Positions 11,039-50,349 of a stretch of DNA of 64,000 nucleotides are shown here, piece by piece. The first letter of the stretch is position 1. Every line of letters begins with the position of its first letter. The translations under genes and the position numbers were made by a program. The notes below the pieces were generated by a model. It worked only from the letters and a program-made list of their open reading frames with translations, was not told the DNA's origin and made no database searches. Source of the stretch: Rhytidiadelphus loreus (lineage: Eukaryota; Streptophyta; Bryopsida; Hypnales; Hylocomiaceae); the NCBI GenBank assembly GCA_947034895.1, contig OX344761.1, forward strand, positions 89,603,447 through 89,667,446. Direction: 5' to 3'.

Positions 11039-11258
11039 CAAACCGCCACTTTTTGCTACTGTGCCTAAATACTATTATTAGATTGGTCAATTTTTTTTTC
11101 ATATTTTCTTGTTGGCAAGTGAAAGGAGGTTCCAACGCACCAAAGAATGTGGCATTTTGATACTATATGCAAAAGTTATGAAGGGCCAAAGGTTTTTTTT
11201 GGTAGAGGCTCTAAATTCGTTTCTTTGACATAAGTGCATATTGATTTTGGAGATGTAC
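11039..11258 (+). repeat. Dispersed repeat family B, copy 1
   Basis: A 220-bp segment that recurs in the same orientation at 60226-60440, about 49 kb away. Both begin CAAACCGCCACTTTTTGCTA and end GATTTTGGAGATGTAC. Shared internal blocks include AAGTGAAAGGAGG, ACCAAAGAATGT and TTTTTTTTGGTAGAGGC. No terminal inverted repeats or coding frame are visible. It is likely a fragment of a high-copy element. Confidence 0.75.
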
Positions 11259-29032: not shown

Positions 29033-30945
29033 GAAAAGCTTGCAAAATACCTGAGCCCCTTGAGGTGCGCTCCTTCTCCACGAACCACGCTAACGTACAA
29101 CGTGATGTTGTTCAGCTCCTAGATATGAACATCAAGAATCCTGAAGCATCACAAGCCCGAACTCTTCCCAATTATAAAGTGACCCCAAAGCTTGCATGAT
29201 TCCCAGAAAACCAATAATCAGGGCATGTCTCTCCAACTTTTAGTGTTTTAAAAAGCAATTACCCCCAAATATGCGGAATGAGGGTAGCGGAATTATAATA
29301 TAAACAGAGAAACGAAGTCACAGTCCCTCTCGACAATTTGTTAAACCAGTGAGCACTGCAATACGCTCAAACCTCTTTAAGTTTAACCCTATTCAACGCC
29401 CAAATCCTTTCTCTATCCTTTTCTTTCATTTTTTGCTTATATCTTTGTCCAAGTATAATACTTGCTTCAATTTCCAATTGGTCATACGGAAGGTTGCTTT
29501 TTGAAGATTCAAGAAATCCTTTGGATAAATGAGAAGTTATTTGGACCCAAAGTACTCTATTCATCATTTACAATATGGAATTTAGGATGCAAAGGGAATA
29601 GGGTTAAACTTACCACCTGGGATCCCAATTTTTTCAATGAGATAGTTTGAATGTGTGACAAGTGTGGTACAGTCAATGATAGTGTAGTGCAGAATATTCC
29701 AGGATATCGATTTAGAGAAAGTCGTAATAAAAAAGTTGCTTGTGTAATAGATGCTTGTGGCTGAGTCTCCTGGTTCCTATGCTCTTGCCATCAAGATGTA
29801 GGTTGGTTTTTTTATATCATAATTCAATACCCCTCATTTTCTTCAATTTGCAGCACACTGGTGCCTTCGAAAAAGAAACAAGCAAAACGTACTCAAATAT
29901 GTATACTCCTCATAACGTATGTGCAGAATCTCTTTCAAGCCGAGCCCAGGTAATTGCAAAACTAACAGCACAACACATAACCTGAAACATACCAGCTCAA
30001 TTTTTAATTGCCCTAAGCATACAAACCCCCTCACCGAACGCCAAGAAACACACCTGCAAACTCTTTGAAATTGCCAAAACACACACCCTGAAAGATGAAC
30101 GATTCATGCTCTAGAAACGAGCAGTTGATTTAAAGTAAAATTCAATGCAGCCAAATTGTATACCACCAGAATCGCCATGTGTTGATCAAAAGGCCAAAAA
30201 GTCGGACAAACGAAAATCCTCACATGACGACCCCAAATTGGCCTATTCGGTCCTAGAAGGAATTAAGGAAGAGTTTATACACCTTGCGTATGGAGAAGCC
30301 ACACACGCGCCTCCAAAACACGCCGCTCGCCAATGCACACCTCACCGAAAACCCTAGAAATTCGAAACCTCGATATCCCTCACGCCAATCAACAATCCAT
30401 TCACTGGTTCAAATCGTGCGGCTCCAATCTCCAATCCTCCAAACCCCTGTCCACACAGCAAGAAATAATCGATCAAACCCCAATTTAGCAATCTCACTAC
30501 CGAAAACCAAACCCTAAACGAATGATGGCTCGAATGATGCGCAGAGATGAAATAAAAGAGGCGTGAAGATCGAAGTGGCGAAGATTGTTTGGGTTGAAGG
30601 CGGCGACTGTCGACTTACTTGCATGTGTGCTCCGTCCGAGAATGTGAGAAAATGTTGTGAGGGGGTTTGTCCGAGGTTTGGAGATTAGTCGCAACAGGTG
30701 CGAGACGAAGATGCGAACGGATCGTTCATTTTGTTCCCAAGGGGGAGCGGTGTTTTTTGTGCACACGTGTTTTAACTTTAGGGCAATTTTTTTGGAAAAA
30801 AATTCTTATTATTCTAAAAATAGATGCTAAAATTATAGGAATTTTTTTCATTGTTTTTTAAATTAGAAAATTATTCTATTCTAAACACTCATCAAATTAT
30901 ATTTTCCAAAAAATAGATATTCAAATAATGATTATTTTGTCCTAT
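29033..30945 (-). promoter_or_regulatory. RNF10 upstream region with probable 5' leader exon and teloboxes
   Basis: No coding gene is supported. The DNA is AT-rich near 29100-30100 and GC-richer at 30140-30770. Read leftward, the GC-richer part holds a telobox (TTTAGGGTTT, complement of 30509-30518), another TAGGGTTTT at about 30348-30356, and a consensus splice donor (AAGTAAGT) near 30615-30625. This suggests an untranslated first exon for RNF10 with an intron of about 1.5 kb, but no acceptor was fixed. Past 30780 the sequence is AT-rich up to the CACTA end at 30946. Confidence 0.35.
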
Positions 30946-31156: not shown

Positions 31157-33569
31157 ATGAACGAAGATGAATTTGAGAAGTTCACTAGGTGCATTGAGTC
31201 ATTGAAGATGCCAAGCGGGTACTCTTCAAATTTTGGCAAGTGCATTAGAAAGAAAAAATTTGGAGATCTGAAGTCCTATGAATACCATGTGATGATGCAA
31301 CAAATGATGCCACTGGCACTTCGAGGGCTCATGGCTCCCAGTCCTCATTTGGCGGTCATGAGGATGTGCAAGGTATTCAGACATCTGTGCACAAAGGTTT
31401 ACAATCCAGTTGACTTTCCATCACTAGAACGCAATGTTGTGGAAAGCACTAGAAGAAAAACACGTCCGGCACAACCAACTACTATGCAACTAGTGCCCTA
31501 TGCAACTGTCATGCAACTAGTTTCCTCTCTATTTGCACAAAATCTAATGTAGTTGTTTTGTGTCATTGTTTTACAACATTCATTCATTGTTTTAGTTGCA
31601 AAGTAGTCATTCTATAGTTGCAAAAAAAGACTAGGAAACAATTAGTGTCCTATGCAACTATTATGCAACTGTAAAATGACCATAGTTGTTTCCTAGTTGT
31701 ACGCTAGTTGTTTCTTAGTTGCACTCTAGTTGTTTCCTAGTTGCTTTTAAAGTTCATTCCCATTTGTGTTATATCAATTGACTCATATCAATTGTAAAGA
31801 GTACCATTAGATTGAACATATAAGACTTGTAAGTTGTTATAGTCTTATGTAATGAATTCTTTTGATAGAATTCTAAGATTTCTATAATTTGTGGGTTTCT
31901 ACAATTTGTAGATTTTGTAGATAAGAATTTAAAAAATAATTAAAATTCAAGAAATTTTATAATCTAGGAAATTGAATTTTGAAATCTAGGAAGAAGGTAG
32001 ATCTGAAAATTTGAAATCTACAAATCATTGAGATTTATATTTTAAAATTTACAAATCTACAAGTTGCAAGCAAATTGCAAGCAAATTGCAAGCAAGTTGC
32101 AAACAAGTTGCAAGCAAGTTGCAAACAAGTTGCACACAAGGATGAAGTTCTTTGTATGGTGTCGGATGACAAAAAACCTTGCAACTAGACTGCAACTAAT
32201 GCGACTTGTCCACTGCAACTACAAACTCTACATTGTCACCTAGTTGCAAACGTCCTATGTAACTACAAAATGAGTTGCATACTGTAGTTGCAAAACCCCT
32301 CATTTTCTTCTAGTGAAGTATGGCATTGTTGGAGATCGAGTTCCCACCTTCCTTTTTCGACATAATGATGCATCTTCCCTACCATCTTGCGAAGGAGCTA
32401 GCTAGATCTCCATGGCTCAGTGAGTATTAGATGGATATATCTAGTAGAGCGGTACATGAAAATGTTGAAGAATCACGTCTAGAATATAATACGATCTAAA
32501 ACATGCATGGTAGAGGGATACTTAATAGATGAATGCATCCACTTCATTACAAAGTACCTCTATGGATATGAGACCACTCAAAGACGTGTATGGGATAAGG
32601 ACAAAGAATATGGAGATGCTGAAGAGGTTCTCCAAGGTGTAGGCAAGCCATACATAATGAGCCCAAAACTCCACGACGTATGTGTTGGCGAATGTTGCCA
32701 GTATGCAAGATTTTCATACATGAGTTTTTCTTCCTAGCCTGTATATGTGATGCATTGTTGTAGAGAGTTTAAGAATTGGTGAACTCATAGTGTGCGAGGA
32801 GGCCATGCTGAGGTCCAAATGCGTAGTAGTGCAGAAGATGTACTAGAGTCATATGTCAACTGTGACTTTTGTTAAATGACTGTAAGACAACTTGGAGATG
32901 ACCAAGTTTGAGTCATTTTGAAATCACCGCATTGGATTGTTGCCTACATCGACCATCTAATGCCACAAAACAAGCTATCTTTACGCTTTTTTGGATGTAG
33001 GAAGTGGACAATTGAAGAAGCAGAAAATCCCCACACATCGGCACTAGCAGATTGGATTCAGAGTATTGTACGAGATTCTGAGTTGGATTTGACGAACCTA
33101 GAGAATATGGATTGCTTGCTCCTCAAAAAGAAGCCATCACAAAGAGCCACGCAGTATACACACATCACTACCTTTGGAAACCACTTCCAAGTGGAGGATG
33201 AGACAATGATACAGTTAGTGAGCTACAATAGCAAGGTCGCTTGTAGTTCCAATTGCCATCAGACAATGAAGGTGAAGTAGTAGTGAACTATGAGTCTTGA
33301 AGGACATATTGGAGTTGGAATATGGTGCACTACATACAAAGATCATTCTATTGCAGTATGAGTGGGTAAAGACAAAAGACAACTGCGGGAATCCCACTTG
33401 CACGAAAAACAACTCCAAGTTCTTTATAGTGAACTTCGGTCACAAATTGCCTCACATGGTGGATCCCTTCATTTTTCCTAGCCAAGTCACACAAGTTTTT
33501 TTCTTAGATGTTGAAGAAAGACTTGGTTGGAAAGTTGTACTTCGCAAAGAGGCAAGAGCACGATGCTAG
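31157..33569 (+). pseudogene. CACTA transposase remnant (DUF4218 and DUF4216 regions), interrupted
   Basis: Segments at 31157-31446 (GYSSNFGKCI, SYEYHVMMQQMMPLALRGL), 32316-32737 (EFPPSFFDIMMHL, YLIDECIHFITKYLYGYE) and 33297-33569 (LQYEWVKT, DPFIFPSQVTQVFFLD) are in the order of the DUF4218-DUF4216 end of TNP2 transposases. An 869-bp insertion splits the first block. Across the insertion site, counting one copy of the AAG duplication, the reading frame continues. Further stops and shifts occur downstream, and the catalytic region is missing altogether. It is non-functional as a transposase. Confidence 0.75.
31447..32315. mobile_element. Small non-autonomous element, CACTAGAAGAAAA ends, AAG target duplication
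   Basis: The 869-bp element begins CACTAGAAGAAAA and ends TTTTCTTCTAGTG. It is flanked on both sides by AAG (31444-31446 and 32316-32318), a perfect 3-bp target duplication inside the DUF4218 coding remnant. The interior is non-coding and rich in short TAGTTGCA/TGCAACTA repeats, with a local tandem of CAAGCAAGTTG-type units at 32061-32137. In reverse complement it is collinear with the left end (about 34265-34385) and right end (about 48990-50021) of the large element, lacking everything between. Confidence 0.8.
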
Positions 33570-34874
33570 GTAGTAGACACAAGAGACGCCTTCATTAGTA
33601 CTACTATGGAGAGTGTAGACATGAGTGCTCCGTAAAGGCTTCCAATTCCATTAGAGATAGTAAATCTTGTTGGAGCCATCGAACTATTAGTGCAGGAGAA
33701 TCTATTAGCACTAGAGGAATATTAGCTTAGTCGTCCACCATTTTTCTATGACTTGAAGGTAGAGTCATACAATCATGAGTAGTCATTGTGTAGTGACAAT
33801 TTACTTGCATTGCACCACCCTAAATACGCCAAACTCGCTTTTTGTATTTAATGTACCATACCCTGATTTACCTCATGTGCATTGCATTTTAAACCCTTAG
33901 TATAGTAAAAAATGGCTACTAAAGTAGTCATACTTCCCTTCACTAGTCACCGCACTTCCTCGTCTTATATTGCCTATAGTCGCATCTAAGGACTATACAC
34001 AAGGAAGTTTTACCCAAGTGGGCAAAGATCTGCCTAGTAGAAATTTTAAAAACAGTCATTTGCCTTTTGCAAGTAATGACTAAGTAACAACATTGTTACA
34101 CTGCAACACCTCCTCCGTTGCAAAGTCCGACTACGTACTATTGGAATTTGACTACTGAAGTCATTTTGTAGTGGGTGTAGTCGCGAACCAGGGAGGCGCA
34201 ACACACCTGCATCCACATCAACACAACGCTTTCCACATCAGGATCTCGGTGAGTCATTTTAATGCACTAGAAGAAAATGAGGGATTTTGCAACTACACTA
34301 TGCAAATGGTTTTTAGTTGCATAGGACATTTGTGACTAGTTTGCGACTGGTGATAATTTGGAGACTTGTAGTTGCAGCGGTGCTAGATTGTGAGCCTGCG
34401 AGCACGAGCCCAAGAGCGGTGAGCAGGGGTAATGTGAGCGGTGAATTCAGAATTAGAAAAATCAGAAGAAAAGACAATTTTGGGCTCTAAATAGACCAAA
34501 TTTTATAAAATTTGTGGTCAATTACTACTTTTAGGGTTTAGGGTGACTATTACTGTGGACCTATAACCGTGGAAGTATTTAGGTGTAGCGATTGCTACGG
34601 ACATATTACTAGGGACTTGTAATCATGGTTTAGGGTGAATATTTGTAGAATTTATTATTGTCGGTATGAATTCAAATAGTAGGGTACACGTTATAAAGAC
34701 AAAGCACAAGAGTATATTAAAATTGATATTGATATTGTAAATAGTTTGTACTGAGTACATTTCCAAATTATAATATTCACACAAACAGAAAGTGATCATG
34801 CTGGAGCTATACCTCTAATTTCAGTCTACAATTTCAAAATTTGAAATACCAATCTCTGAAGTACTATTGGTCTT

Positions 34875-37800
34875 CTAGGCCTGTTCGCGAGTGTCACTTG
34901 AATCCTTGATGATACCAGCCTTAACGAGAAGCAGCTTCACTTCATTGAAGCTAAAACTTGGAGAGTGTATAAACTTGTCGACTACTGGATTCATTTTGCA
35001 GAAATAGCGGAATAAGTAGTAAAGATGTTTGCAACTCACATATTGATGCCGACCACCAATTGCGGAGACGGCCATATCTACAAAATCGGGACAAGTGCAC
35101 TCAGAATACATGCCTACTGTGATTCGGTAAACCTTTTGCGTGGGCTCCGTTCCAGATTGAAGGGTGATAATGGCACCAAGTCCGGGTAAGGGAGCATGGT
35201 TACTCCCAAAATCAACCCTTTGACATTACCAGCACTCTCCCATTTATTGCGATGCTCAGTAGTTGGAGCATTTGCAATACGGCGAATGGCCTTGCTCCTT
35301 CGAGTTGTTGGATATGTGTCCGCATTCAATGGACTACTTTCATTGTAAAAGTGCGCCTTGAACACATTTGACATTGTAAACAACCGTCGAGGTGACATAG
35401 GTGGTCGCTCTTGAAGTTGAAAGCCGGCTTCTTGCAATAGAAGGGTTTCATGTCGAGTTAAACTGGTGGCAGTGAGCACTGGCCATACGTCTGGTACTTG
35501 AGGCCAATCAATAACCCAAAGACGTCTTGAGCCTCTCACACATCGATCAAGGTCATCTGGACAAAACCAGAAGTCGGTCATGATCTCCTTGTTTCCACCA
35601 TATTGCTTCTTGCGACCCCGATACGTTGGGGCTGGAGTACCTTTAGATCCCTTTGCAATTCTAGCAGTGCAACGAATGTTTGTCCCTCTTTGTTGGGCGT
35701 GACATTTACAGCTCGATTTATGAGACAATCTTGCAATGTGCCATTGTGTAGGGTCACAATCACTCTCCATTGCAGTTGAGACATGCGTTACATGCGACAA
35801 TGGAGCGAGAGGGGCTGGTTCATTAGAAGCCATTGTCGGTGTACCTGTAGATCGAATCCGCACTCGTGGTTGAGAGAAGTTCACCTTGTCTGGACGATGA
35901 GAATCACCATCTGACCCAATAGGCAGGTCAAGTTTACGTTTGCTACTACCAAAAACTTCTTCGCCTTCCAAATGTGGAATACGTGTTCCAACATCACTTG
36001 GGCCAGGCAGATCATTCAAGGCCTCGGCAATCTTCTTAGGGTCGCCGCTTCGTCTAGCGCCTCTTAACTTCAACTCTTCTTTTGATGGCCCTGACCTTGA
36101 TGTTGTACCGTTCAAAAATGCTCGATAATTCGTCATCTGCATGAAGGCTCGAATGCAGTCATCACAAGTGGCGGCAAATAAATCATTACCACGATTTCCG
36201 GATTGTTGCAACCACTTGTTGTGAATTGTTTCCGATAAGTTGCATGATGGCATGTCTGCTATTTCTTCCAGACTCAACCCCTAAAAGAGAAACAAATGTA
36301 CAGTTAGGCCCTGTATAAAGATTTCCTGGAAAAAAACCCACCAGAAAATGGTAGACTACTTCGATTTTGGTCTCGACAGGAAGAGGTCAAGACTCCTCTC
36401 GGCGCCGAGGGGAAAATCCTCCACGGCACCACTCCCTATACTGCTTCGAGTTCTATATAAATTTCATATGATTTTTGATGGGACCCAAAAAAATCATAAT
36501 GACGTACAACTAATTCACTGAATAAAAACCAAAAAAAGAATATGTTGAAGGGTCTATAAGCAATTCATATATAAATTGAGAAAGGACATCTTATGACGTA
36601 CCATTTGCATGAACCCGCCCCATTGGCGATATCGGAAGTGCCAGAACGCAAGCCACAACTCGAGTTCCCTCAAAGCATCTTCTGAAGCTGCTCCTGATGA
36701 TAGCCACCAAGAGCGGATTGCCAAGTACCGCGTCTCCGCTTCTTCCATAGTCTTTGAATCCTTGTATTGCTTGCAAAGACGAGTGTGTTGATGTTGCATG
36801 TCTAGTTTGATGAGCTTCTGTGTATGGCGGTGTAATGAAGTACTCCAATGTAGGAGACATGTACGTTCATGATTCACCATCTCTATTTTAGAATCCCCTG
36901 TACCATACACAATGCGAACGGCATTCCAATTTGCTTGTGCACTGTCAGCCATGAAGCCCTTGAAGTTTGTATTTTGCACTCCATTGCATCTCATGACCTC
37001 GTTTAAGGACCTCCACATAATGCCTTGCACCTCAGCGTCTTCAGATTGCATGTCACAAACGGCAATTGTCATGACCTTCCTGCAACCTGTGTCATAGACG
37101 TGGCAAGCCATAGTTGTCCAATCCTTTACTCGTTTGACGTGATCAAACATGAGCCATGCGTTCTCTAAATCTCCACCGGGTTGCATGCGGTTCACCAAAT
37201 CAACTCCACTACCAGGACCTTCTACCAACATCTTAAACAGGTACACCTTTTCCTTCCCTTGTCCAGGGAAGACACTGTCATGGATGTAGTCAAACTTCAA
37301 ATTCCGCTTCATATTCATAATACTATCTATGACTCCACCCTTTCCAGTGCTATGGAAAGAAGTGATAATATTACGGATGTTAGGAGAACTTAGTCTTTGG
37401 AACCTATCCATGACATCTTCTAACGATTTCCCTTTCAAGATCTCTTTAGGCCCTTCACCACTATGTATCAAGTGGCGGTCTAGAAATACTTTACTAGCTG
37501 AGAGGGCAATGGCTGAGTTGGTAGCGGTAGGAGTTCTGGCAACCTCGCTGGCTATGAGAACGGAAATAGTATCTACAGTCTCTCTACAAACTCCTGAAGC
37601 CACAGGATGCATGTGATTCCCTAGATGAATGCACGCTCTAGTCATCAACGCGTTATCGCTAAACACGTAATATATTCGCGCGTCACACATACTAAGACAA
37701 CTTGGCGGATATTTGCATATCTTGCAGAGAAGACTTGATTCCTTTGGAGGATCAGAACCAACCTGGAATGGAGCAACAGTATATCCACACCACTCTGTCT

Positions 37801-38911
37801 CATTCTGCTTGGTGGACCGTTGGAAGTATGAACACTCAGAATTAGTACATACCAAATGTCCCGCACAAGCTGATTTTCTGAACTTCAACCCGTCTTGGTT
37901 GTGGATATTGGATGTCATTGTTTGACACCAAGCATGACCATCATATCGTTTATCCATGCCTTGAAGATTCCCACCGCTACATGACGAAGTGGATACACGA
38001 AGTGATGGCAATTCAAATACTACGTCTCCATCAAAGTCTGCAGGAAGATATTGCACTTTGTGGTGGATTAGTGAATTGTAATCTAAAGCAGCCACTTCGT
38101 TCCTAGATCGCCTTATTGAAGCAAGATTTCGTAGGCACCCAACTATACTAGTTTGCCCTGTACTAATTGGATACGTTGGTGGGCGAGAGTGAGTTGAAAC
38201 ATGAAGAGTACTAGACGACGTGCAGTGTTTACCCAAAGTAGTTATAGGGCCATCTTCGAATACTTCATGAAGATGCATTCCTTGTATACTGGGCTAGTTA
38301 GGGGATTCTCCCTCTGACTCACTTGAGATATCTATGACTGGGTCAAGGACTTCTTTTTTCAAGTGAAGATGTTCAGGAGGTGTATTGGCAACTGTAAAGG
38401 ACTCAGGTTCTATGGAATTTCCAACAACATGCCGAGCATGAGGCATATCAACAGTAGAATGATCTGACCGGTGATGTACAATGTCTGTGGAGGCTCCTAT
38501 CATAAGAGATGACAATCCATAAGCTCTGTAGCGACCCTGATGAAGTTGCCACACATGACCATCGTCAACTTCCAACCTTAGTATGTGGACATACTCCTTT
38601 AGTTGACCTGAATCAAACAAGACTTCTTCTTCAACATATATACTGGACTGGATGAAACCAAATCGGACATGCAGAAGGTGTGAAGACACTACAACATACC
38701 CTTCTATTCCAAGAGGGAGAACAACTGGGATTTCATGGCCATCTGCTCGAATGGAGGCCATTGACACAAGAAGGAGGTTCAAGCTAAAAGAGAGTTGTAG
38801 TACTAGACCTTCAATGACATTAGAGGCGAAGTGAGTGAATGGGGTACGTTTGTATATATTATATAAGCATGAGAATGACGTTTCAAAAAATTTGATTAAT
38901 GCTTCTGACAA
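34875..38911 (-). pseudogene. SWIM zinc-finger, MULE-like transposase gene with reading-frame damage
   Basis: A leftward gene within the large element. A continuous frame runs 38911-36602 except for one in-frame TAG at 38294-38296. An intron with consensus ends follows (donor after 36602, acceptor before 36280), then a frame from 36280 to 35114. The C-terminal SWIM zinc finger (ECTCPDF, then CKHLYYLF) is in another frame starting by about 35200-35112, so one frameshift is also needed. Probable start is MASIRADGHE at 38761. A Cys-rich N-terminal zone (HLVCTNSECSYF, WCGY, LLCKICKYPPSC) resembles DNA-binding zinc fingers of transposases. The middle (AWLMFDHVKRVKDWTT, FMADSAQANWNAV, CLLHW) follows the MULE catalytic layout. 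It could be a TE gene or a domesticated relative; I do not recognise the exact family. Confidence 0.65.
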
Positions 38912-40862
38912 TGAAATTAATGTTGCCAGAGGCCTCCAATTTTGTATTCGTACAGACGATCTTCATATAGATATTCAAATCGTATTTGAGGGAAACAAGC
39001 CGTTTCTAAAACCGAACTCATAAACGCGAGTAAAGCACAAACTAAGGAATATGTAACTTGTGAGTAGATTTGGGGCGCATTCATAATTTCCAAGGACCAT
39101 CCATCCTTCCTTAGGACCCATCCGAGGTTTCAAAACATTCATTGCATCTGTCCTACATTCAATTACATGGATCTATAGAAGTGTCATCAAAGCATTGTCG
39201 TGTTAAATTTTAGTTGCACAACTAGAATCTATGGATATAGAATCAAATACAAGTGCATGACGGTTTTGATGGTATCGAAATCAAACGATAGAAAATATGA
39301 AATAAGGATTTGTCAAATCAATTTGAAATCTGGAGGGCATACATTTTTTTTATTTACAAGCGCCTATGACCATGATCACTTGCATAATGAGACGTTTATG
39401 TGGAAATTGTGCTGTACCCATAAAACATCCGTACTTCATTCATTTCGGTAGTATTGCCAACGAACTATTTCTTTGAAGAAGTAGGCGAATGCTTGTGAAT
39501 ACAAAAGCAATTTCTCATCCTACATGAGTTCGCCGTAATGGAATACATAACGGTGATAAGCAGTGAAATATTGGATGTCAGAAATCCAAAGATTCACCAT
39601 TAGATCATAAAAATGATTATTACAATAAAAAGTACTTCCACACATCTTATAAAATGAAGCTTGAAGTCACTATATCTCAATTGCAGTGGACATGGTAAAA
39701 GATCATTAGTATTTACAGTACCATCAGCATTATGTGAAGTATTCTAACAACGAGTTCGTAGTTGTACCATTAGCATTTCAGAGTTTAGTATCCACTTCTT
39801 ATGTTCACTTGCAGTATGTGCAATTAGTCTCATGCATGCGGCAAATGGTATTTCCGAAAAGGCTTTAGGGCATAGAATTAGGAAGAGGAGAAAACAAAGG
39901 AAACTCCTGTACTCATCGCGGAAACAGTTGCAGCGGTCTAGAAGAAGAGGCAAAGGTGATCCTATAACAACTACATCACCTCTAAAAGGATACGTGACAG
40001 TAGATGATAAAAAGGATAATGTCATTTGTGATAGAAATGAAGGTAGCCATTGGGAGCTCTCGATCAGTGAAGAGGAGACAATGAGACTATGCAACGTAGG
40101 AGCAACATCGAATCCCTACGTAAGTGAACACATCTCCGCATGATTGCATTGTTCCATGTTACATTAGTCGAGAGTATCTATTATTTAGTATCGCAGACAC
40201 TGATAAAATCCAAATCCTAGTAAATAATATATTTGATGTGAGGACCAAGAGAATTGCAAATTGTTTATGTATAAACGGATGCAACTGAGTACCCAAACAT
40301 CTCATACTGATTAAATTGGAAGTATGTGCACATGTTGAGTATTCGTATCCTAGGACAACGTATAGAGAGTGTATTTTTGGGTTGCTCGGACATTCAAGAA
40401 TTCTATATGAATGTCAACTATAAAATGTCATTACTAATTATTGATTGCATCGAAAAATTCAGAACATCTTGTGCAATATACTGATTTCACTTGACATACC
40501 AGTATGAGTAACTTGAAATTAATTTAGAAGTTTGGAAGGCGGACTATCGCTTGCTGACCTGGGCATCAAGCAAGGTAGTAGGAAAAAGTCAACTGGTGAG
40601 TATGCGGTGCTCTCTCTCCGGAAGACTGTCGGAGGACATCACTTTCAGGAAGACTCGTCGCAGTCTCCCCCATTCTCACCATTTCAGTTAGAGAATCCAG
40701 TGCAGCTAGGTCGAGGGAATCACCTTGTTTTCATTTGCAGATCCTCTTGTTCTTGGTACGTAGGCTTTCCCTGAAGATTTCCAATTATCGCTTCCTTGCT
40801 TTCTTCTCACTGTCTCGTACTAGGGTTTGAATACGATTCGGGTTTTGCAGGAAACGACGACA
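38912..40862. other. Divergent intergenic region between the two large-element genes
   Basis: About 1.9 kb separates the leftward transposase-like gene from the rightward ParB/methyltransferase-like gene, and must hold both promoters. A 103-codon frame at 39832-40143 (basic, RIRKRRKQRK) and an 80-codon frame at 40532-40774 have no recognisable domain. The latter may be 5' leader of the rightward gene, because the sequence from about 40600 is GC-richer and leads directly to the ATG at 40863. Confidence 0.4.
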
Positions 40863-43800
40863 ATGGCACGGAGGCCGGCAACCCGGAGTGCGCCAATGGG
40901 AGCTCAACAAATCCCAGCAGATGCAAGTGGGAGCAATGACGAGATAGGAATTGAGTCTGTCAACATCAATACCGCAAGAGCGCCGACATCCACTGTGAGA
41001 ACCCTAATATTTTTTTTTTCTTTGATGTTGGTTATGAATGCACTCCCTTCAGTCAATTGTGATGAATGCTCAGCAGCCGAATAAGAATTTTGGATTTAGT
41101 AAATTACAAATAGAACCCAAACTGGTGGCATCGACGGGGAAGCAAGCCTGATTCGCTGGAAGATTACCATTGTCGCCGAGGGGTTCCAGGCTTCCTGATG
41201 GAGAAAGATTTTTTGTTAAAACCCAATTGTGGGCTCTCCGTAAGGGCTGCATGATTCGGGCTGCTTGGTGGCTGCGACGTGCGAGGGATACCATCAGCGC
41301 CGAGTTGTTCCTGATGAAGAATTTCTTTTATTGAGTCCCAATTTCGCAACACAGCCGGAGGGTCCGAAGCTGTGGGCTGCATGGTCTCAGCGCCATGCGA
41401 GGGTCACCGTCGGCGCCGAGGGGAGCTGATCTTCAAATAAATTTTTTTGACAACGAGGATTGGGCTCACCCCAAGCTGTGGGCTGCGTGGTGGCTGCGCC
41501 ATGCGAGGGTCACCGTCGGCGCCGAGGGGAGCTGATCTTCAAATAAATTTTTTTGACAACGAGGATTGGGCTCACCCCAAGCTGTGGGCTGCGTGGTGGC
41601 TGCGCCATGCGAGGGTCACCGTCGGCGACGAGGGGAGCTGATCTTCAAATAAATTTTTTTGACAACGAGGATTGGGCTCACCCCAAGCTGTGGGCTGCGT
41701 GGTGGCTGCGCCATGCGAGGGTCACCGTCGGCGCCGAGGGGAGCTGATCTTCCAATAAATTTTTATGAAAACGAGCAGTGGGCTCACCCCAAGCTGTGGG
41801 CTCCCCGGTGGCTGCGCCAAGCATGGGTCACCGTCGGCGCCGAGGGGAGCTGATCTTCCAATAAATTTTTATGAAAACGAGCAGTGGGCTCACCCCAAGC
41901 TGTGGGCTGCGTGGTGGCTGCGCCATGCGAAGGTCACCATCGGCGCCGAGGGGAGCTGATCTTCCAATAAATTTTTTTGACAACGAGGATTGGGCTCACC
42001 CCAAGCTGTGGGCTGCGTGGTGGCTACGCCAAGCATGGGTCACCGTCGGCGCCGAGGGGAGCTGATCTTCCAATAAATTTTTTTGACAATGAGCATTGGG
42101 CTCACCCCAAGCTGTGGGCTGCGTGGTGGCTGCGCCATGCGAGGGTCACCGTCGGCGCCGAGGGGAGCTGATCTTCAAATAAATTTTTTTGACAACGAGG
42201 ATTGGGCTCACCCCAAGCTGTGGGCTGCGTGGTGGCTGCGCCATGCGAGGGTCACCGTCGGCGACGAGGGGAGCTGATCTTCAAATAAATTTTTTTGACA
42301 ACGAGGATTGGGCTCACCCCAAGCTGTGGGCTGCGTGGTGGCTGTGCCATGCGAGGGTCACCGTCGGCGACGAGGGGAGCTGATCTTCAAATAAATTTTT
42401 ATGAAAACGAGCAGTGGGCTCACCCCAAGCTATGGGCTCCCCGGTGGCTGCGCCATGCGAGGGTCACCGTCGGCGCCGAGGGGAGCTGATCTTCCAATAA
42501 ATTTTTATGAAAACGAGCAGTGGGCTCACCCCAAGCTGTGGGCTCCCCGGTGGCTGCGCCATGCGAGGGTCACCGTCGGCGCCGAGGGGAGCTGATCTTC
42601 CAATAAATTTTTATGAAAACGAGCAATGGGCTCACCCCAAGCTGTGGGCTGCGTGGTGGCTGCGCCAAGCATTGGTCACCGTCGGCGCCGAGGGGAGCTG
42701 ATCTTCCAATAAATTTTTTTGACAACGAGCATTGGGCTCACCCCAAGCTGTGGGCTCCCCGGTGGCTGCGCCAAGCATGGGTCACCGTCGGCGCCGAGGG
42801 GAGCTGATCTTCAAATAAATTTTTTTGACAACGAGGATTGGGCTCACCCCAAGCTGTGGGCTGCGTGGTGGCTGTGCCATGCGAGGGTCACCGTCGGCGC
42901 CGAGGGGAGCTGATCTTCAAATAAATTTTTTTGACAACGAGCACTGGGCTCACCCTAAGCTGTGGGCTGCGTGGTGGCTGCGCCAAGCATGGGTCACCGT
43001 CGGCGCCGAGGGGAGCTGATCTTCCAATAAAAATTTTTGACAACGAGGATTGGGCTCACCCCAAGCTGTGGGCTGCGTGGTGGCTGCGCCATGCGAGGGT
43101 CACCATCGGCCCCAACCTGCTGGCTCCAACCTGCTGGCTCTGTAGTGCCCGTGTGGTGTGAGGGTCACCGTTGGCGCCGAGGGGTGCCAACTGAGTCAGA
43201 AAATGTCTTTGGCGACGAAGGTGTATGCTCACCCAGACGGCCCGAAGCTTCTATCAGCGTGGTCAGAGGAGGCAAGATATTGGGTCCATCGGCGCCGAGA
43301 GTAGAGACGGATCAAATTATGTTTGATCCAGTTAGACAGAAAATTAATGTGCATGATATCTGTGGAGCCGACTGGGTTCGTAATGAGGACTAGGCAGAGC
43401 ACATGTGATAATGGTATCCGAGTTCTTGCCATCATTGGCGACGATGGCAAATTTTGGATACTCCGTTAATAATATTGTAACTCACTCTTTGGCTGCTTAC
43501 ATGTTGATAAAATTTTGCTGAAGCCCCTAGTATTAATCCCTGGCTTTCTCACAGGAGGTGGTAGTTCAGGGAAACCAAAATCCCGAGGTTCAAGAACGTG
43601 CGGATACCGTTGGAGATGAAGTTGATGAGGACAGAGTCTCAGACGACGACTCAGAGAACAACAACCAGGACTTCACAACAGAAGACGCATATCGGAGGTC
43701 TCAGAAAGTTAATACTGTAGCATCCATTGGTGCATTGAGACTGAAACCTGACTCCATATCACGTATTAGGATTCCTCTGTGCCATCTTGCCCAGATGCCG

Positions 43801-46800
43801 ATGGTTCGACCAGCTCTAAGATGTGACCTCACACGACTAGAGCAGGAATTTGTACACGGTTATAGAGATGGATCTTCGGTGTTTTACGTTTCCCTGACGA
43901 ACGAGCAAGGAGAGACAGAGAAGGTAACCGAGGCCGAGAAGGAAGCTTGGGGACCGATATGGAATGATGAGAATGAAGAGTTTGATGCCAAGCTGAATGC
44001 AACACCCGGGATGGGCCACTTTCAGGGCTCCAAATTTTTCGTGTGTGATGGGAACCATAGACTCCTGGCGTGGTCATCATATATTTCTAAGTACCATGCT
44101 GTTGACAAGGACTGGCACATTTCTGTCGACTCCATAATTCTAGAGACAAAAGGAAAAATTGGGGACGTCATGCACGCTATGCATGATATCAACAAGTACG
44201 TACAGTCTCTTGTCTTTTATGAATTCGAAATTCATGAGTGTTCATATTATGGTGTCCTGATTACCATGTGTTGTTTGTGAAGGCAAACAGAGAATTTGTT
44301 TATTAAAACGAGTCTCGTACACACGCTATACCGTGTCCAGAAATATGGTATTCTCCCGCTAGACAAGTTTGCCGAGCACTTGAGTGCCTCTGAGATGACA
44401 CAGTGCCAGCAGAACACACGAAAGAGCTGGTACACTATGTCTTTGGAGGTGTTCGCATCTTTCATTTTTCGGGTAAGAATCTTCATTTTACTAATGATTA
44501 TAGTTGTGAATATTTGTTTCATAATTACGAAGCAAATTTCAAATTGGTTTTGCAGTACGAGATTGCGGTAGTTGCTGATGTGGCTGTTCGAAAATACAAC
44601 GAAGAAACGACGAAAGAGGATCAGTCAGAAGAAGGAGTCCTTTCCGCTATGCGATTGGGAACTAAGGAGCAAACTTCCAAGTTGGTTCAGAAATTGGGCA
44701 AGATGACAGCAGTTGCTAACCCCAATCTAAGGAGCGACTGGCTCAAAGAGGTATATTGATCATATTTAGTATATACAATTAATAATTTGATTTATCTTCT
44801 TTTGGATTGGTTTTAATGGTTGCTTTTTAATGGTTTGTTTATACAGATTGAGCGGCACTGGAGCTCCAATATAACTCCCGAAATGACTCTTGACAAGTTG
44901 CAAATGATTGCAACTTGCAATGTCAAGAGTGAACACAAGGTGAGGTGGCTGAGGTGGTGGAATTCTTCAGTTCAAACGCGAGAGGCCAGAAGGTTTCCAT
45001 TGAAGCCAGTTGGAGAGAATGACTTAAAGATTTTTTTGATGAAGGCATGCTGGTATGGTGGGGTATGTATTTCTTAGTTATTTGCATTCCTCTATACTCC
45101 TCCGCTATTTGCTAGTGTGCATGATATTTGAAATGTTATTGCCATATGATTCTCTCTCATAAAATTGAACTCTCAAATTCCACAGATTGAAGACACAGGC
45201 TTCGAAATGTTTGATGACATTGTCAAGAAGGACCAGTTGGCATTGTCTATGGATTCCCCCACTGAACCGGAGAGTTTTGGAGATTACATTGAAGGATGGA
45301 GAATTAGGGTGTGGGACAAAGCATTTTTGTCCAATTTCAAGGGACAAGACGTTTTCAGGAAGTCCGATGACTTCAAGAAACGCAAGGACAGTGATCTAGT
45401 TGTAAAGCGTGTGATTTACCGGTAAATATTATATTCTTTATTCTTGCACTTGATTCATGGTCGTAGCTATGCATGTCAATTTCCACAATTTTACTTCCAT
45501 TTACCATATTTTTTTCTACAGGTACTTCACGTACGAGCTCCTTCCGAAAGGGGCCATATTGAAGCGAGATCTTCCTCCTTTTCTTGGAACATGGCTCGAT
45601 GTCTCCTCGGAGCACTGCATGTTCTCTGCCTCGCAATTAAGGTGGTGGACCAGTTCGCATTTGAAGTCCGGCGCCTGGTACTTGGATTGCCCACCAGAGT
45701 TCACTCCTTTGCCCGAGGAGCAACTCAAACACTCCATTGCTTCTCATGAGGTTGCCCAAGACATGAATGACTTTGTTGGCCTTGATGAAGATGCGAAAGC
45801 AAGAGCTCTGAAGAAGAGAGAAGACACTGACAAGAAGATAGCATTGAAGAACTCAGAGGCAGTGGACAAGGCAAAGGAGAGGATTGCTAAGAAGGCCTTA
45901 AAACTTGCCGAGACGGGGGACGCATCTACGGCAAAGCAGCGAAAGGGGAAGAAGGCTAAGCAGCTAATTGTGCCCTCCAACACTAAGGACGAGGGCTCTC
46001 ATCACCAACTTTCGGTTTCACGAGGAACCAAGCGCGATGTTGAGTACATTTCACTTAGCGATGGTGGCATGGTGCATGGTTCCTCAACAGTGGAGATCCT
46101 AAATGACGGCGAGATTTCAATCCACGAGTTCATTCTTAATTTTTCTCTGAAACATGTATTGACTGATCCACTACCCCAAGTGTACCAAAACATTTTGAGT
46201 TTCATTGACAAGGTTAGCACTATCTCATTCTTTCTTTAGTTATTTCCGCTTCATGTTCTGTAATTGAATTCTTAATTTTACTGACTATCTGGATTTGGTT
46301 GCAGCACAAGGGAGAGAAGCATCGGTTTTTCAAAGGAGTGAAGAGTGATAAACCACGCATTGATCTCATCATTGCTGATATGCCAGAGGGATTGCCTGTC
46401 CCAGATTTGTCGGTGCCTGCGATTAGCATTCCCAAGTGGAATGTGGATGACCCTCTCTGGCTGGAGGCATTGTTTGAATTTGCAGATGGTCACTTGCATG
46501 ACGATGGAGCTCTCATTATTATCTATCCTTTGAGGGCCGTCACGAAAGCCACTATTCTCAAGTATGGTACTACTTACTCTTTCGAGAAGATGAAGGACTG
46601 GTGGGGAATGAACTAGCTACACTTGGCCTCACCGGTTTCACCCTCAAGAACGGTACATAGTTTTTTCATTTTGTTTTTGAATGTATCGTATTGCTTATTG
46701 GCATTTCATTTGACTTCCAAAACTCTTGCAATTATCATGAGATCCAATGATGGCGTATTTAGTATTGGAATTGTATGCTTGCTTTTGTTTTAGTTCTTGT

Positions 46801-47910
46801 GAAATGTAATTGAAGTTTATGCATTCCAATTACTAAGTTTCCGTGGCCCTACTCTACTTTGTGCTAATTTCTTAATTGAGTTCATTCACGCAGACACAAC
46901 GATTTGGGATTTCATTGTTGGTGAGGAACCTCCCTGGGATTGGTCCTTCCAAGTTCAAATTCCAACCGTGCCCGAACTTGAAGAAACTAGGGGTGGATGT
47001 AGCCCGCGACGATGTCCTACAAAATTTCACGAAAGTTGAGACATTGAGTATGGACAGCAACTCCAAACCTTGGAGAGGGGCGCGAGAGAAGGATCCACGA
47101 TTTTTGCAAATGCTGATTGAAGCATGCTCACTCCCAGACGACGTTGTTCTAGACTGCACTACTGCAACAGGTTATATCAAATGCCTTCACTACATATTTT
47201 TGGAAACTCTAACTTCTATTTGGTCTTTGATTCTTTCAATTCTGTTAATTGACTTCATTGTTGTCATACTGGTGTGTGCTATTAGGGGCCTCCATCCATG
47301 CTTGTAGGGTTCTGAGCCAGCACATTGTTGCACTTGAGGAAGACAAAGGCATCTTTGATGCCGTTTTGGCCCCAATGATTTGTATACCTCCATGTGCTCC
47401 TACATCAACTCCAACAGTCGTGGAACATTTTGACGATGAGGATTCATTGGATGTTGATGTTCCCCACATTGTGAAGAAATCTCGATTCAGTAAGTAAGTC
47501 TATCCTGAACTACCATTTACATTAAATAAATAAGTCGTATCCTAAAACTTGCATGCGGTTCACTTTCACATATGTCCATTCTGTTCAACGTTGTGAAATG
47601 GATTTGCATATAATTTCTAATTTCTTTTGTGGATTGCAACATGATTTCTAAGACGGCTGGTCATCGCCCTTTCTTTAGTCTACCTAGTTTTTTCCCAAGC
47701 CCAGAGAAGACATTCATGTTGCCGTCGTACGCAGAGGCTTTAGCTTCAACATATGCATGTCGACCAAATGCTCCTCTGAAGAAGAATTCTAGGTTGACAG
47801 AGCCACGAGTCTTGCAGTTTGTAGACGTCATAGCCTTCGAATCAGACAATGAGACATCATCGTCTCATAGTAGTGATCACTCTGAGTCTATGTCAACATC
47901 TTCTACTTGA
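40863..47910 (+). CDS. ParB-like domain fused to DNA-methyltransferase-like region, 11 exons, frame-disrupted at 3' end
   Basis: Exons: 40863-40994, 43555-44195, 44283-44472, 44556-44750, 44847-45062, 45186-45421, 45522-46212, 46305-46652, 46894-47170, 47286-47493, 47679-47910. The first seven join cleanly (767 aa), and exon 8 opens in frame. The acidic N terminus precedes a ParB-like region with IRIPLCHLAQM and FFVCDGNHRLLAW (about residues 205-217), the DGNHR type of ParB signature. A basic coiled stretch (ALKKREDTDKK, AKKALKLAE) follows. Then come RIDLIIADMPE (motif-IV-like), DDGALIIIYP, FLQMLIEACSLPDDVVLD and CTTATGASIHACRVL (motif-I-like), HIVALEED. This is the IV-then-I order of beta-class DNA methyltransferases. 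DPPY is replaced by DMPE and the glycine motif is altered, so activity is doubtful. TAG at 46614-46616 follows a G run; frame changes near 46603 and 46920 are needed to read on, about 1120 aa in all. The methyltransferase call is by eye. Confidence 0.55.
41341..43119 (+). repeat. 106-bp GC-rich tandem repeat array (about 16-17 units) in intron 1
   Basis: A regular 106-bp unit repeats without break from about 41447, with a degenerate unit before it (41341-41446) and weaker relatives at 41140-41340 and 43120-43300. Each unit contains GGGCTCACCCCAAGCTGTGG, GTCACCGTCGGCGCCGAGG and GGAGCTGATCTTC. Units alternate between variants at several sites: TTTGACAACGAGGATT or TATGAAAACGAGCAGT, GCGTGG or CCCCGG, and CATGCGAGGG or CAAGCATGGG. 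Because 106 is not a multiple of three the array cannot encode one continuous repeat protein; the run of 64-codon frames it produces is an artefact. It lies wholly inside intron 1 of the ParB/methyltransferase-like gene. Confidence 0.95.
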
Positions 47911-49580
47911 TTTGATTTGAGGATGCATTGCAGTACGTGCCTTTCATTTTATTGTCTACAATATGTTGTTTTCTAACCCATAGTCATCAACATTCTACAT
48001 AACATACATGATTGTTGTATTGGAACGTAAACATTTTTTTTTCAATTTTGTAATACTTTTTGAAATAGTATGATCTAGTTTCTTGTACAACTTTCAGAAT
48101 GTGAGCCTCATTTTGAATAATCCTTAATAGTGGTTTAATATGACTACTGATTATAAAGATGAATAATAATCACTATAATTCATTCCATTTCATTCTGAAC
48201 CCATGATAATGAAGTAACAGTCCTTCTGGTGTATATTTGACATTATATGCCTAAACACAATTTTGGCCTAATACATTTGTGAAGACCATAATCCTAAAGT
48301 TACCCTAAATCATTAACATTCAAAATTAAGAGTTGGCCAGTGTAGAGGTCTTCCTCCGTCCCAATGCATGGAGAATGAAACAAATGTCCTTCAAATAATC
48401 CTTTATCTTGTTATGTTATTCTAGTGTCATAAATCATTGTATGTCATGCTTTAAACCCTAATAACCCTCTTTTATCCCTTATTTCATTAGTACAAAATGG
48501 TTACAAATATAACTTTATATTTGTTAGAAGTATTTCACTTTGATCCCTCTGAGTAATTTTGGAATTGGAGTCCTAATCGCAGTTTTTATTCTACATTTTA
48601 ATGGTTGAAACTAACCAAACACCATGTATACGCCAATACTGGCCAACATACACTAAAAAGGTAATTCAAGGATGATTTAGAATTACTCTAATTCAGAACA
48701 ATAGAATTCAAAATGAATTTCACTTTGCACGTACTAAACTCTTTAATAAAAAATTATGCTTGACCATTTTTTTCCCAAATTTACATTCTATGCTCCCGTC
48801 ATTATTTTTAAGTCCACGGTCATGGGTACTTCATCAATTAATAAACCGCAAAAATATTCACTCGCAAGCTCCCAAGCTCACACTTGCATGCTCACAGGCT
48901 CACAGGCTCACAAAATAGCAACCCTGCTTGTAGTTGTAGTAGACACTCTAAAATCTAGGAAATAGGTGGAGCAATTGTCAAAGTCACATCACGCATGTGA
49001 CTCATTTGCAACTTGTTTGCAACTTGTAAATTTGTAGATTTTAAAATATTAATCTCAATGATTTATAGATTTCAAAATTCAATACCTAATTTCTTTCTAG
49101 ATTTTAGAATTTCAAATCTAGTTTTTTCTAGATTTTGTATTTTCAGATCTAGATTCTTTTAGATCTTTGAATTTCAAATCTAGATTTTTTTTAGATTTCA
49201 AATTCTTAGATCTACCTTCTTCTTAAGTTTCAAAAATTCAAATACTGGTATTTAAAAGATTTCATTGGTTAAGGAAACTTTACAATTTCAAAGATTTAAA
49301 TTTTTATTTATTTCTATAGATTATAGAGATCTACAAATTGTAGAAATCTATACTATATAGAAATCTACAAATTTTAGATTTCTATAATCTATAGATATCT
49401 ACAAATTGCAGAACTTTTAGAATTCTATTAATAGAATTCATTGTACTAGACTTCAACAACTTACAAGTCTTACATGTCCAACCTAATGGTATTTTTTACA
49501 ATTGATATGGAACAATTGATATAAGACAAATGGGAGGAAACAACTAGTGCATGACTTAAAAGTGATTAGGAAACAACTAG
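47911..49580. other. Downstream flank and right subterminal zone of the large element
   Basis: No gene is supported. From 47911 to about 48830 the sequence is AT-rich. At 48838-48945 a run of CTCACAGG/GCTCACA units is an inverted relative of 34366-34450 near the other end. From about 48990 on, the sequence follows the small element at 31447-32315 in reverse complement (ATTTGCAACTTG, long AGATTT-rich tract, then TAGTTG-type repeats). Confidence 0.5.
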
Positions 49581-49583
49581 CTT

Positions 49584-49750
49584 CACTACTAGAAAATTCA
49601 GTTTTTTTGTTGATTTGGTTGTATTCATTTGGTTCACTTTTGTATTGATTTTTATCCAAATCAACAAATTACTCTTCAAATCAACAATAAGGTGAAATCA
49701 AATCAAATTTATGCAACCAAATAAAAAAAAAGTTGAATTCTCTAATAGTG
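49584..49750. mobile_element. 167-bp MITE nested in the right subterminal zone
   Basis: The ends CACTACTAGAAAATTC and (complement of the right end) CACTATTAGAGAATTC match at 14 of 16 bases. The interior is AT-rich with inverted AAATCAACAA motifs. The small related element has no such sequence at the corresponding position, so this looks like a later insertion. No target duplication is clear (CTT against TAA). It is a CACTA-like non-autonomous element by its terminal bases. Confidence 0.55.
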
Positions 49751-50349
49751 TAAGAAACAACTAGTATACAACTAGAAAGCAACTAGGAAACAACTATGGT
49801 CATTTTACAGTTCCAATCTATTTCTAGTTGTTTCCTAGTCATTTTTTGCAACTATAGATTGACTATTTGTGACTAAAAAAATGTATCAATGTTGTAAAAC
49901 AACGACATAAAACAATTATGTTAGATTTGGTGCTAATAGAGAGGATTACAATTGTAGGGTAGTTGTATAGGACATTAGTTGCATACTAGGCAGTTGTGCC
50001 GGACATGTTTTTCTTCTAGTGAAGTCATCGGGTTTCCTTGTCAATCATTTCCTAGTCATTTATAAGTGGAAAATAGTTACATTATATAACAATGTAGTCA
50101 TTCTACATGATTGAGTCTTCCACATTGGATACCCTCTGAAACCCGCCAAAAGGTCAACAACGTTTTGAATTGAAAATGGTGGATGAAGCTCTAAGGTCAT
50201 CCACACTTCATCTCATAGTCATAGTCACAACTATAGAACAACTCGGACATTGGGGCCATTTTGAATTTGGTGCTATTACAAGGATAGTAGTCAAACCGGA
50301 CATAAAGTCATTCTTGCCTAGTTACAAAAGGGGCCAATTTCTTGTAGTG

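What the first reader, a model, noticed from the sequence alone, without database searches (positions are those of the whole stretch)
34265..50021. A 15.8-kb candidate transposon carrying two divergently transcribed genes
The two ends (CACTAGAAGAAAATGAGGG... and ...TTTTTCTTCTAGTG) and their subterminal sequences match, end for end, the complete 869-bp element at 31447-32315 in reverse orientation. Everything between, about 14.5 kb including a SWIM/MULE-like gene and a ParB/methyltransferase-like gene, is missing from the small one. This is the expected relation between a full element and its deletion derivative. It would make both genes transposon-encoded.
Basis: partly seen in the sequence, partly recalled or inferred. 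Interest (0 to 1): 0.9.

Follow-up and report, generated by a model that had tools for sequence, protein, structure and literature searches.

The report
Two-gene transposon nested inside a CACTA
The 15.8-kb stretch is two transposons, not one: a 14.6-kb element with its own ends and two genes sits inside a small gene-less CACTA element, and its second gene resembles bacterial ParB and DNA-methyltransferase proteins and travels with repeated palindromic DNA sites that may be its targets.

Summary
The ends are real, but the full-element/deletion-derivative reading is wrong. Genome copies of the gene-bearing DNA begin at about 34375 and end at about 48926, not at the CACTA ends. The window copy and 11 others have 10-bp target duplications (11 of 12 identical, one with a single mismatch). 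With the 14,552-bp insert and one duplication removed, the remaining CACTA matches the genome across the junction in 35 of 42 rows. So a two-gene transposon sits inside a ~1.2-kb gene-less CACTA.

Gene 1 is transposase-like, nearest IS256/MULE by a weak fold match, with no Pfam hit. Gene 2 (10 exons, 1,079 aa in copy Y) has a ParB/sulfiredoxin-like start and an N6/N4-methyltransferase-like end lacking the catalytic motif. They stay divergently paired in 66 of 75 copies, under purifying selection.

A palindrome, TCGG(CG/AT)CCGA, recurs upstream of gene 2, and its type follows the gene 2 subfamily. I infer a VANC-like, self-recognising anti-silencing factor. No function was tested.

The parts
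34375..48926 (+). Inner two-gene transposon, 14,552 bp, termini CAGCGGTGCTA.../...TAGCAACCCTG
   Evidence: Genome copies begin and end here; both-end reads of 10 further copies
34365..34374 (.). 10-bp target duplication, left copy (CTTGTAGTTG)
48927..48936 (.). 10-bp target duplication, right copy (CTTGTAGTTG)
34375..34404 (+). Left terminal inverted repeat (imperfect, about 30 bp)
   Evidence: Alignment of the two ends
48897..48926 (-). Right terminal inverted repeat
34265..34374 (+). Left piece of the interrupted CACTA element (110 bp)
48937..50021 (+). Right piece of the interrupted CACTA element
31447..32315 (-). Complete 869-bp gene-less CACTA relative (same orientation as the interrupted one when reverse-complemented), AAG duplication
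36602..38761 (-). Gene 1 exon 1: transposase-like core; in-frame stop at 38294-38296 in this copy
   Evidence: fold match to ISCth4
34875..36280 (-). Gene 1 exon 2, with CxC...CxH SWIM-type pattern; one base shorter than in copy Y
36399..36408 (.). Palindrome TCGGCGCCGA in the gene 1 intron
   Evidence: the intron site is also present in copies E2 and Y
41367..43110 (+). Tandem array between the genes, 106-bp unit x 16.5, with 13 exact TCGGCGCCGA
43289..43298 (.). Palindrome TCGGCGCCGA between the array and gene 2
43600..44195 (+). Gene 2 exon 1 (ParB/sulfiredoxin-like; open frame extends upstream to 43537)
44283..46212 (+). Gene 2 exons 2-6: 44283-44472, 44556-44750, 44847-45062, 45186-45421, 45522-46212
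   Evidence: Splice sites shared with copy Y
46305..46652 (+). Gene 2 exon 7: methyltransferase-like motif IV region (DMPEG); stop codon at 46614-46616 in this copy
46894..47493 (+). Gene 2 exons 8-9: motif X/I region (46894-47170, 47286-47493)
   Evidence: PF01555 and DpnA matches in copy Y; mapping
47640..47907 (+). Gene 2 exon 10 (acceptor differs from copy Y)

Best explanation
Shown: the interval holds a 14,552-bp DNA transposon (34375-48926) with short inverted ends and a 10-bp target duplication, inserted in a ~1.2-kb gene-less CACTA element; its two divergent genes move together and are kept by selection. Inferred: gene 1 is an IS256/MULE-related DDE transposase that cuts and pastes the element. 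Gene 2 is a self-recognising DNA-binding factor: its ParB/sulfiredoxin-like part, perhaps with a helix-turn-helix after it, binds the palindromes TCGG(CG/AT)CCGA that the element keeps between its genes and in the gene 1 intron; its methyltransferase-like part lacks the catalytic tetrapeptide and probably no longer methylates. By analogy with VANC of Arabidopsis VANDAL elements, binding at these clustered sites would keep the element's own copies unsilenced. The structure is about 0.97 likely, palindrome binding by gene 2 about 0.6, the anti-silencing role about 0.4. The window copy looks inactive.
For: Borders. Duplications: 11 of 12 copies identical at 10 of 10 bases, one at 9 of 10. CACTA without the insert: 35 of 42 rows cross the junction, 26 of them at 84% identity or more. 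Gene pairing: 66 of 75 gene 1 copies have gene 2 divergent within 16 kb, random mean 0.26, maximum 3. Selection: dN/dS 0.106 (gene 1) and 0.073 (gene 2) between copy Y and the window copy. Gene 2 exon-intron structure shared by copies ~70% identical. Sites: 15, 10 and 20 TCGGCGCCGA in three elements against 0.15-0.27 TCGGNNCCGA expected; the 106- and 127-bp array units of two subfamilies share only ~28 bp round the palindrome; on C1, CG sites lie upstream of 7 of 9 close window-type copies and 0 of 20 AT-subfamily copies, AT sites upstream of 7 of 10 close AT-subfamily copies and 0 of 13 window-type copies. VANC parallel: PMC5735166, abstract and section 9.
Confidence: 0.5

Rival explanations
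1. One reading: one 15.8-kb CACTA element encodes both genes, and the 869-bp element is its internal-deletion derivative.
For: Outer ends and subterminal DNA match the small element in the right order.
Against: Gene-bearing copies end inside the CACTA ends; 10-bp duplications at the inner borders; uninterrupted CACTA copies cross the junction; outer flanks ATG/AAG do not match.
Confidence: 0.01
2. Gene 2 is a transposition accessory protein (like MURB or an integration helper): it binds the palindromes to assemble or regulate the transposition complex or the divergent promoter, without touching silencing.
For: Both genes are conserved and linked; sites lie between the genes and in the gene 1 intron; accessory genes are known in MULEs (PMC6446971 passages).
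Against: Arrays that change between relatives while one motif persists resemble VANC targets. The palindrome was not looked for at the element tips as such; the listed sites in the full elements are internal.
Confidence: 0.25
3. The palindromes are sites of a host transcription factor that drives the divergent genes, and gene 2 does something unrelated to them.
For: The 18-bp form of the CG palindrome occurs in a different repeat family of the same genome (L080-L088).
Against: Site type follows gene 2 subfamily; two-fold symmetry and clustering fit a ParB-like dimer.
Confidence: 0.15
4. Gene 2 is an active DNA methyltransferase that marks the element's own copies with an unusual base modification.
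For: PF01555 match at E=9e-4 and DpnA at E=0.05, both over the C-terminal motif X/I region.
Against: Motif IV is D-x-P-(E/D)-G in 17 of the 18 rows that cover it, and none of the 18 has PP plus an aromatic residue; the Pfam score is below the cut-off.
Confidence: 0.08

Closest known systems
VANDAL elements of Arabidopsis with VANC anti-silencing proteins
   Same: A transposon-encoded protein beside a transposase, with short motifs clustered in the element's own non-coding DNA, often as tandem repeats that change between relatives (PMC5735166 abstract and section 9, PMC10398659 abstract).
   Different: VANC has DUF1985/DUF287; gene 2 gives no such Pfam hit and is ParB-like plus methyltransferase-like. 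The target here is a palindrome. Anti-silencing is not shown here.
Mutator-like elements (MULEs) and IS256
   Same: Duplication length within 8-11 bp (PMC6446971 passages); best coherent fold match is an IS256-family transposase; SWIM-type pattern in the window copy.
   Different: No PF10551 or other Pfam hit, although 30 ordinary PF10551 places exist in this genome; constant 10-bp duplications; short ends; 14-15 kb; an extra gene of a kind not listed in the part of the MULE table that I saw.
Fungal transposons carrying TET/JBP dioxygenase (KDZ and others)
   Same: DNA transposons carrying a gene related to DNA-modifying enzymes, thought to counter silencing (PMC12730594 abstract and passages).
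   Different: A dioxygenase there, a catalytically altered methyltransferase-like part here; Zisupton makes 8-bp duplications, here 10.
Bacterial ParB/Noc/KorB with parS-type sites
   Same: Best fold matches of gene 2 exon 1 are Noc, KorB, sulfiredoxin and ParB; repeated palindromic sites near the gene.
   Different: No Pfam ParB hit in 25 members; clamp formation, CTP use and site binding untested; eukaryotic, 10 exons, fused to a methyltransferase-like part.

Membership tests
CACTA (for the gene-bearing element) | Termini CACTA...TAGTG bounding the genes | tested here: not met
   Copies begin at CAGCGGTGCTA and end at TAGCAACCCTG
CACTA (for the gene-bearing element) | 3-bp target duplication | tested here: not met
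   10-bp duplications in 12 copies read
CACTA (for the outer element) | CACTA...TAGTG termini and 3-bp duplication | tested here: inconclusive
   Termini present; this copy's flanks are ATG/AAG, though 17 of 20 relatives match
Mutator-like elements | 8-11 bp target duplication | tested here: met
   10 bp, 11 of 12 identical
Mutator-like elements | Transposase recognised as MULE (PF10551) | tested here: not met
   No Pfam hit for the 1,184-aa protein of copy Y; no PF10551 place coincides with a gene 1 place
Mutator-like elements | IS256/MULE-like RNase H fold | tested here: inconclusive
Mutator-like elements | SWIM zinc finger | tested here: inconclusive
   CxC...CxH in the window copy, one Cys missing in copy Y, no Pfam hit
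KDZ (Zisupton) | 8-bp target duplication | tested here: not met
   10 bp; 8 bp for Zisupton per PMC12730594 passage
VANC-type anti-silencing system | VANC domains DUF1985/DUF287 | tested here: not met
   Only N6_N4_Mtase and CCDC47 (E 4.5) listed for gene 2 at E<=10
VANC-type anti-silencing system | Short motifs clustered in the element's non-coding DNA, changing between relatives | tested here: met
   L075 an exception
VANC-type anti-silencing system | Protein binds the motifs and removes DNA methylation | not testable with these tools
   Needs bench or methylome data
ParB/sulfiredoxin superfamily | ParB/Srx fold | tested here: inconclusive
   Ranks 1-10 of Foldseek are Noc, KorB, sulfiredoxin and ParB, but best E 0.02 on a model with mean pLDDT 59
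ParB/sulfiredoxin superfamily | Pfam ParB match | tested here: not met
   None in 25 members
N6/N4 DNA methyltransferases | Profile match over the curated cut-off | tested here: not met
   PF01555 E=9e-4, 19.7 bits against 26.7
N6/N4 DNA methyltransferases | Catalytic (D/N/S)PP(Y/F/W) motif (recalled) | tested here: not met
   D-x-P-(E/D)-G in 17 of 18 rows covering the motif; none of the 18 has PP plus an aromatic residue

The most novel reading that the evidence does not exclude
The inner transposon carries a ParB-like clamp with its own parS-like palindromic site arrays: a plasmid-partition-type protein-DNA module rebuilt in a eukaryotic nuclear transposon, fused to a dead methyltransferase and used as a self-addressed anti-silencing system that arose independently of VANC, with site and protein co-diverging between subfamilies (CG-centre and AT-centre).
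Probability: 0.22. Interest if true: 0.9.

Novelty: new variant of a known kind. Interest (0 to 1): 0.7.

Why it matters
It corrects the annotation: the two genes belong to a high-copy transposon lineage of their own, not to CACTA. That lineage has a transposase-like gene that Pfam does not recognise and a conserved partner gene with a ParB-like and a methyltransferase-like part, a combination I did not find described in the held library. If the partner binds the palindromes, this is a second, independently built self-recognition system of plant-type transposons, and the CG and AT site types give a ready specificity test.

Tried and rejected
Single-CACTA model: rejected. Duplication of 8 or 9 bp: one search left 8-10 bp open; ten other copies gave 10 bp. 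A frameshift in gene 2 near 46.6 kb was first suspected and then read as a single stop after comparison with copies E2 and Y. Copy E2 also has broken genes (a stop in gene 1 exon 2; six stops in the aligned gene 2 frame), so copy Y was used for gene models. Pfam scans of single exons and of alignments A1 and A3, and sequence searches of solved structures with A1 and A2, gave no meaningful family. Viral contigs gave no relative of either protein; prokaryote genomes were scanned for the ParB-like exon only and gave none. Isolated genome hits of the CG palindrome were read at ten places: nine lie in what looks like another repeat family (L080-L088) and one, L089, has a different context, so the genome-wide count (772 strand matches against 0 for the control) is not all this transposon. 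The host species was not identified; a plant is inferred from the element types.

Rows given to scripts: one search had 36 of 55 non-self right-part rows, 39 of 42 non-self left-part rows and the 75 non-self gene 1 rows; one search had 75 of 76 gene 1 rows (second half of one split copy left out) and 150 of 150 gene 2 rows. One search used chromosome C1 only, because the pattern search lists only its first places (50 AT-type sites; 80 CG-type sites after merging the two strands). Alignments used 17 of 221 relatives (A1), 24 of 216 (A3) and 19 of 19 (A4).
Full report
Observation. The ends at 34265 and 50021 are those of a CACTA element related to 31447-32315 in reverse orientation. The 869-bp element has an AAG/AAG duplication, and 17 of the 20 family copies fetched have identical 3-bp duplications. 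The outer flanks of the large interval, ATG and AAG, do not match.

Borders. A query from 34165 to 36600 finds genome copies whose alignments start at about 34375: 36 of 42 non-self rows begin at query 207-215, that is window 34371-34379; one begins at 184 and the other five are internal pieces or a CACTA-end match (recount). A query from 46900 to 49026 finds copies that end at about 48926: 29 of 55 non-self rows end at window 48925-48929, two end 8 and 14 bases further on, and the rest stop earlier. The two ends, CAGCGGTGCTA... and ...TAGCAACCCTG, form an imperfect inverted repeat. Ten other copies were read at both ends: nine have identical 10-bp duplications and one differs at one base. The window copy (CTTGTAGTTG) and copy Y (L073/L074, gtaccccact) are identical as well. 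Of 36 right-part matches given to a script, 24 have a left end in the right orientation within 40 kb and 22 have gene 1.

Empty site. Removing 34375-48926 and one duplication leaves a 1,195-bp CACTA. A 413-base piece across the join gives 42 rows in the genome, of which 35 cross the junction, 26 of them at 84% identity or more; the window's own row does not. One inner-element copy on C5 is itself split by a 951-bp gap that starts with a CACTA-end match (rows at C5:32895495-32898657), so the two kinds appear also to nest the other way round; this is read from coordinates only.

Genes. In copy Y gene 1 has two exons and 1,184 aa; gene 2 has ten GT-AG exons and 1,079 aa without a stop, its true start and a possible upstream exon being unresolved. 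The window's gene 2 exons map to the same junctions with indels in multiples of three, except that the last acceptor differs. The window copy has an in-frame stop (38294-38296) and a one-base length change in gene 1 and one stop in gene 2, so it is probably inactive. dN/dS between Y and the window copy is 0.106 for gene 1 and 0.073 for gene 2; synonymous sites are near saturation, so the ratios are approximate. Of 75 gene 1 copies 66 have gene 2 divergent within 16 kb; random placement gives a mean of 0.26 and at most 3 in 1,000 trials; nine copies have no listed partner. Both families are large: 76 gene 1 and 150 gene 2 matches were scored among 1,601 and 1,389 first-look candidates, so the counts are lower bounds. 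Relatives occur among metagenomic proteins (221 and 216 at E<=0.001). None was found in viral contigs (both proteins) or in prokaryote genomes (ParB-like exon only).

Sites. TCGGCGCCGA occurs 15 times in the window element: 13 in the 106-bp array between the genes, one in the gene 1 intron (36399) and one at 43289. Copy E2 has 10 and copy Y 20; the expectation for TCGGNNCCGA from shuffles is 0.15-0.27 per element, and the other 49.4 kb of the window has none. Copy Y's array has a different, 127-bp unit, and the two units share only a ~28-bp stretch round the palindrome (score 35 against a shuffled maximum of 25). Of five further loci, L076 has four TCGGCGCCGA without a long array, L077-L079 have four, three and three TCGGATCCGA, and L075 has an 86-bp array and none. 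On chromosome C1, CG-type sites lie within 4 kb upstream of 7 of 9 close and 1 of 7 more distant window-type gene 2 copies and of 0 of 20 AT-subfamily copies; AT-type sites lie upstream of 7 of 10 close and 1 of 10 more distant AT-subfamily copies and of 0 of 13 window-type copies. Within 12 kb of a listed gene 2 copy lie 56 of 80 CG-type and 20 of 50 AT-type sites. Genome counts are 772 strand matches (CG type) and 341 places (AT type) against 0 for reversed controls, but nine of ten isolated CG-type hits read lie in what looks like another repeat family.

Mechanism. The closest working analogue is VANC: a protein encoded by VANDAL elements that binds short motifs clustered in their non-coding DNA, often in fast-changing tandem repeats, and causes loss of silencing marks (PMC5735166 abstract and section 9, PMC10398659 abstract). 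Gene 2 shares this layout but not VANC's domains, so I propose convergent function with a different protein. Binding, clamp formation and anti-silencing are inferred, not shown. A helix-turn-helix after the ParB-like part is my reading by eye from recalled ParB features.

Literature. No paper on a ParB- or methyltransferase-like gene in a MULE-type transposon came up in the listings, which cover only the held open-access library. The MULE table of PMC6446971, seen in part as passages, lists SET, ovarian-tumour, PMD and other extra motifs but none of this kind in the part shown. The review PMC13317346 was seen as passages only; it has no occurrence of methyltransferase or ParB. PMC12730594 was seen as abstract and passages, PMC5225508 as passages.

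Noticed in passing
L080-L088 (C1:1385650, 16950200, 18754220, 26579180, 33667340, 35888150, 54191600, 71347250, 86126320): What looks like another repeat family carries the same 18-bp palindrome CCCCTCGGCGCCGAGGGG inside a longer hairpin beside A/T runs.
   Followed up: partly
window 49584-49752: A ~169-bp insert with CACTACTAGAAAATTCA...GAATTCTCTAATAGTG ends inside the right CACTA piece, absent from the small element: a possible MITE.
   Followed up: no
C5:32895495-32898657 (rows): A copy of the inner transposon seems split by a ~951-bp CACTA, the reverse nesting order.
   Followed up: no
L004/L005 (C2:64086480-64087399 and C2:64083839-64084758): Two 920-bp CACTA copies lie inverted about 1.7 kb apart with the same identity (90%) to the query, perhaps a local inverted duplication.
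   Followed up: no
window 40824-41084 (+): An open frame beginning MARR..TRSA just before the array has a counterpart in copy Y: a possible first exon of gene 2, with the array in its intron.
   Followed up: no
window 7820-8049 / 25223-25457, 11039-11258 / 60226-60440, 4371-4510 / 29609-29737: Other short dispersed repeat pairs in the window, 74-81% identity.
   Followed up: no
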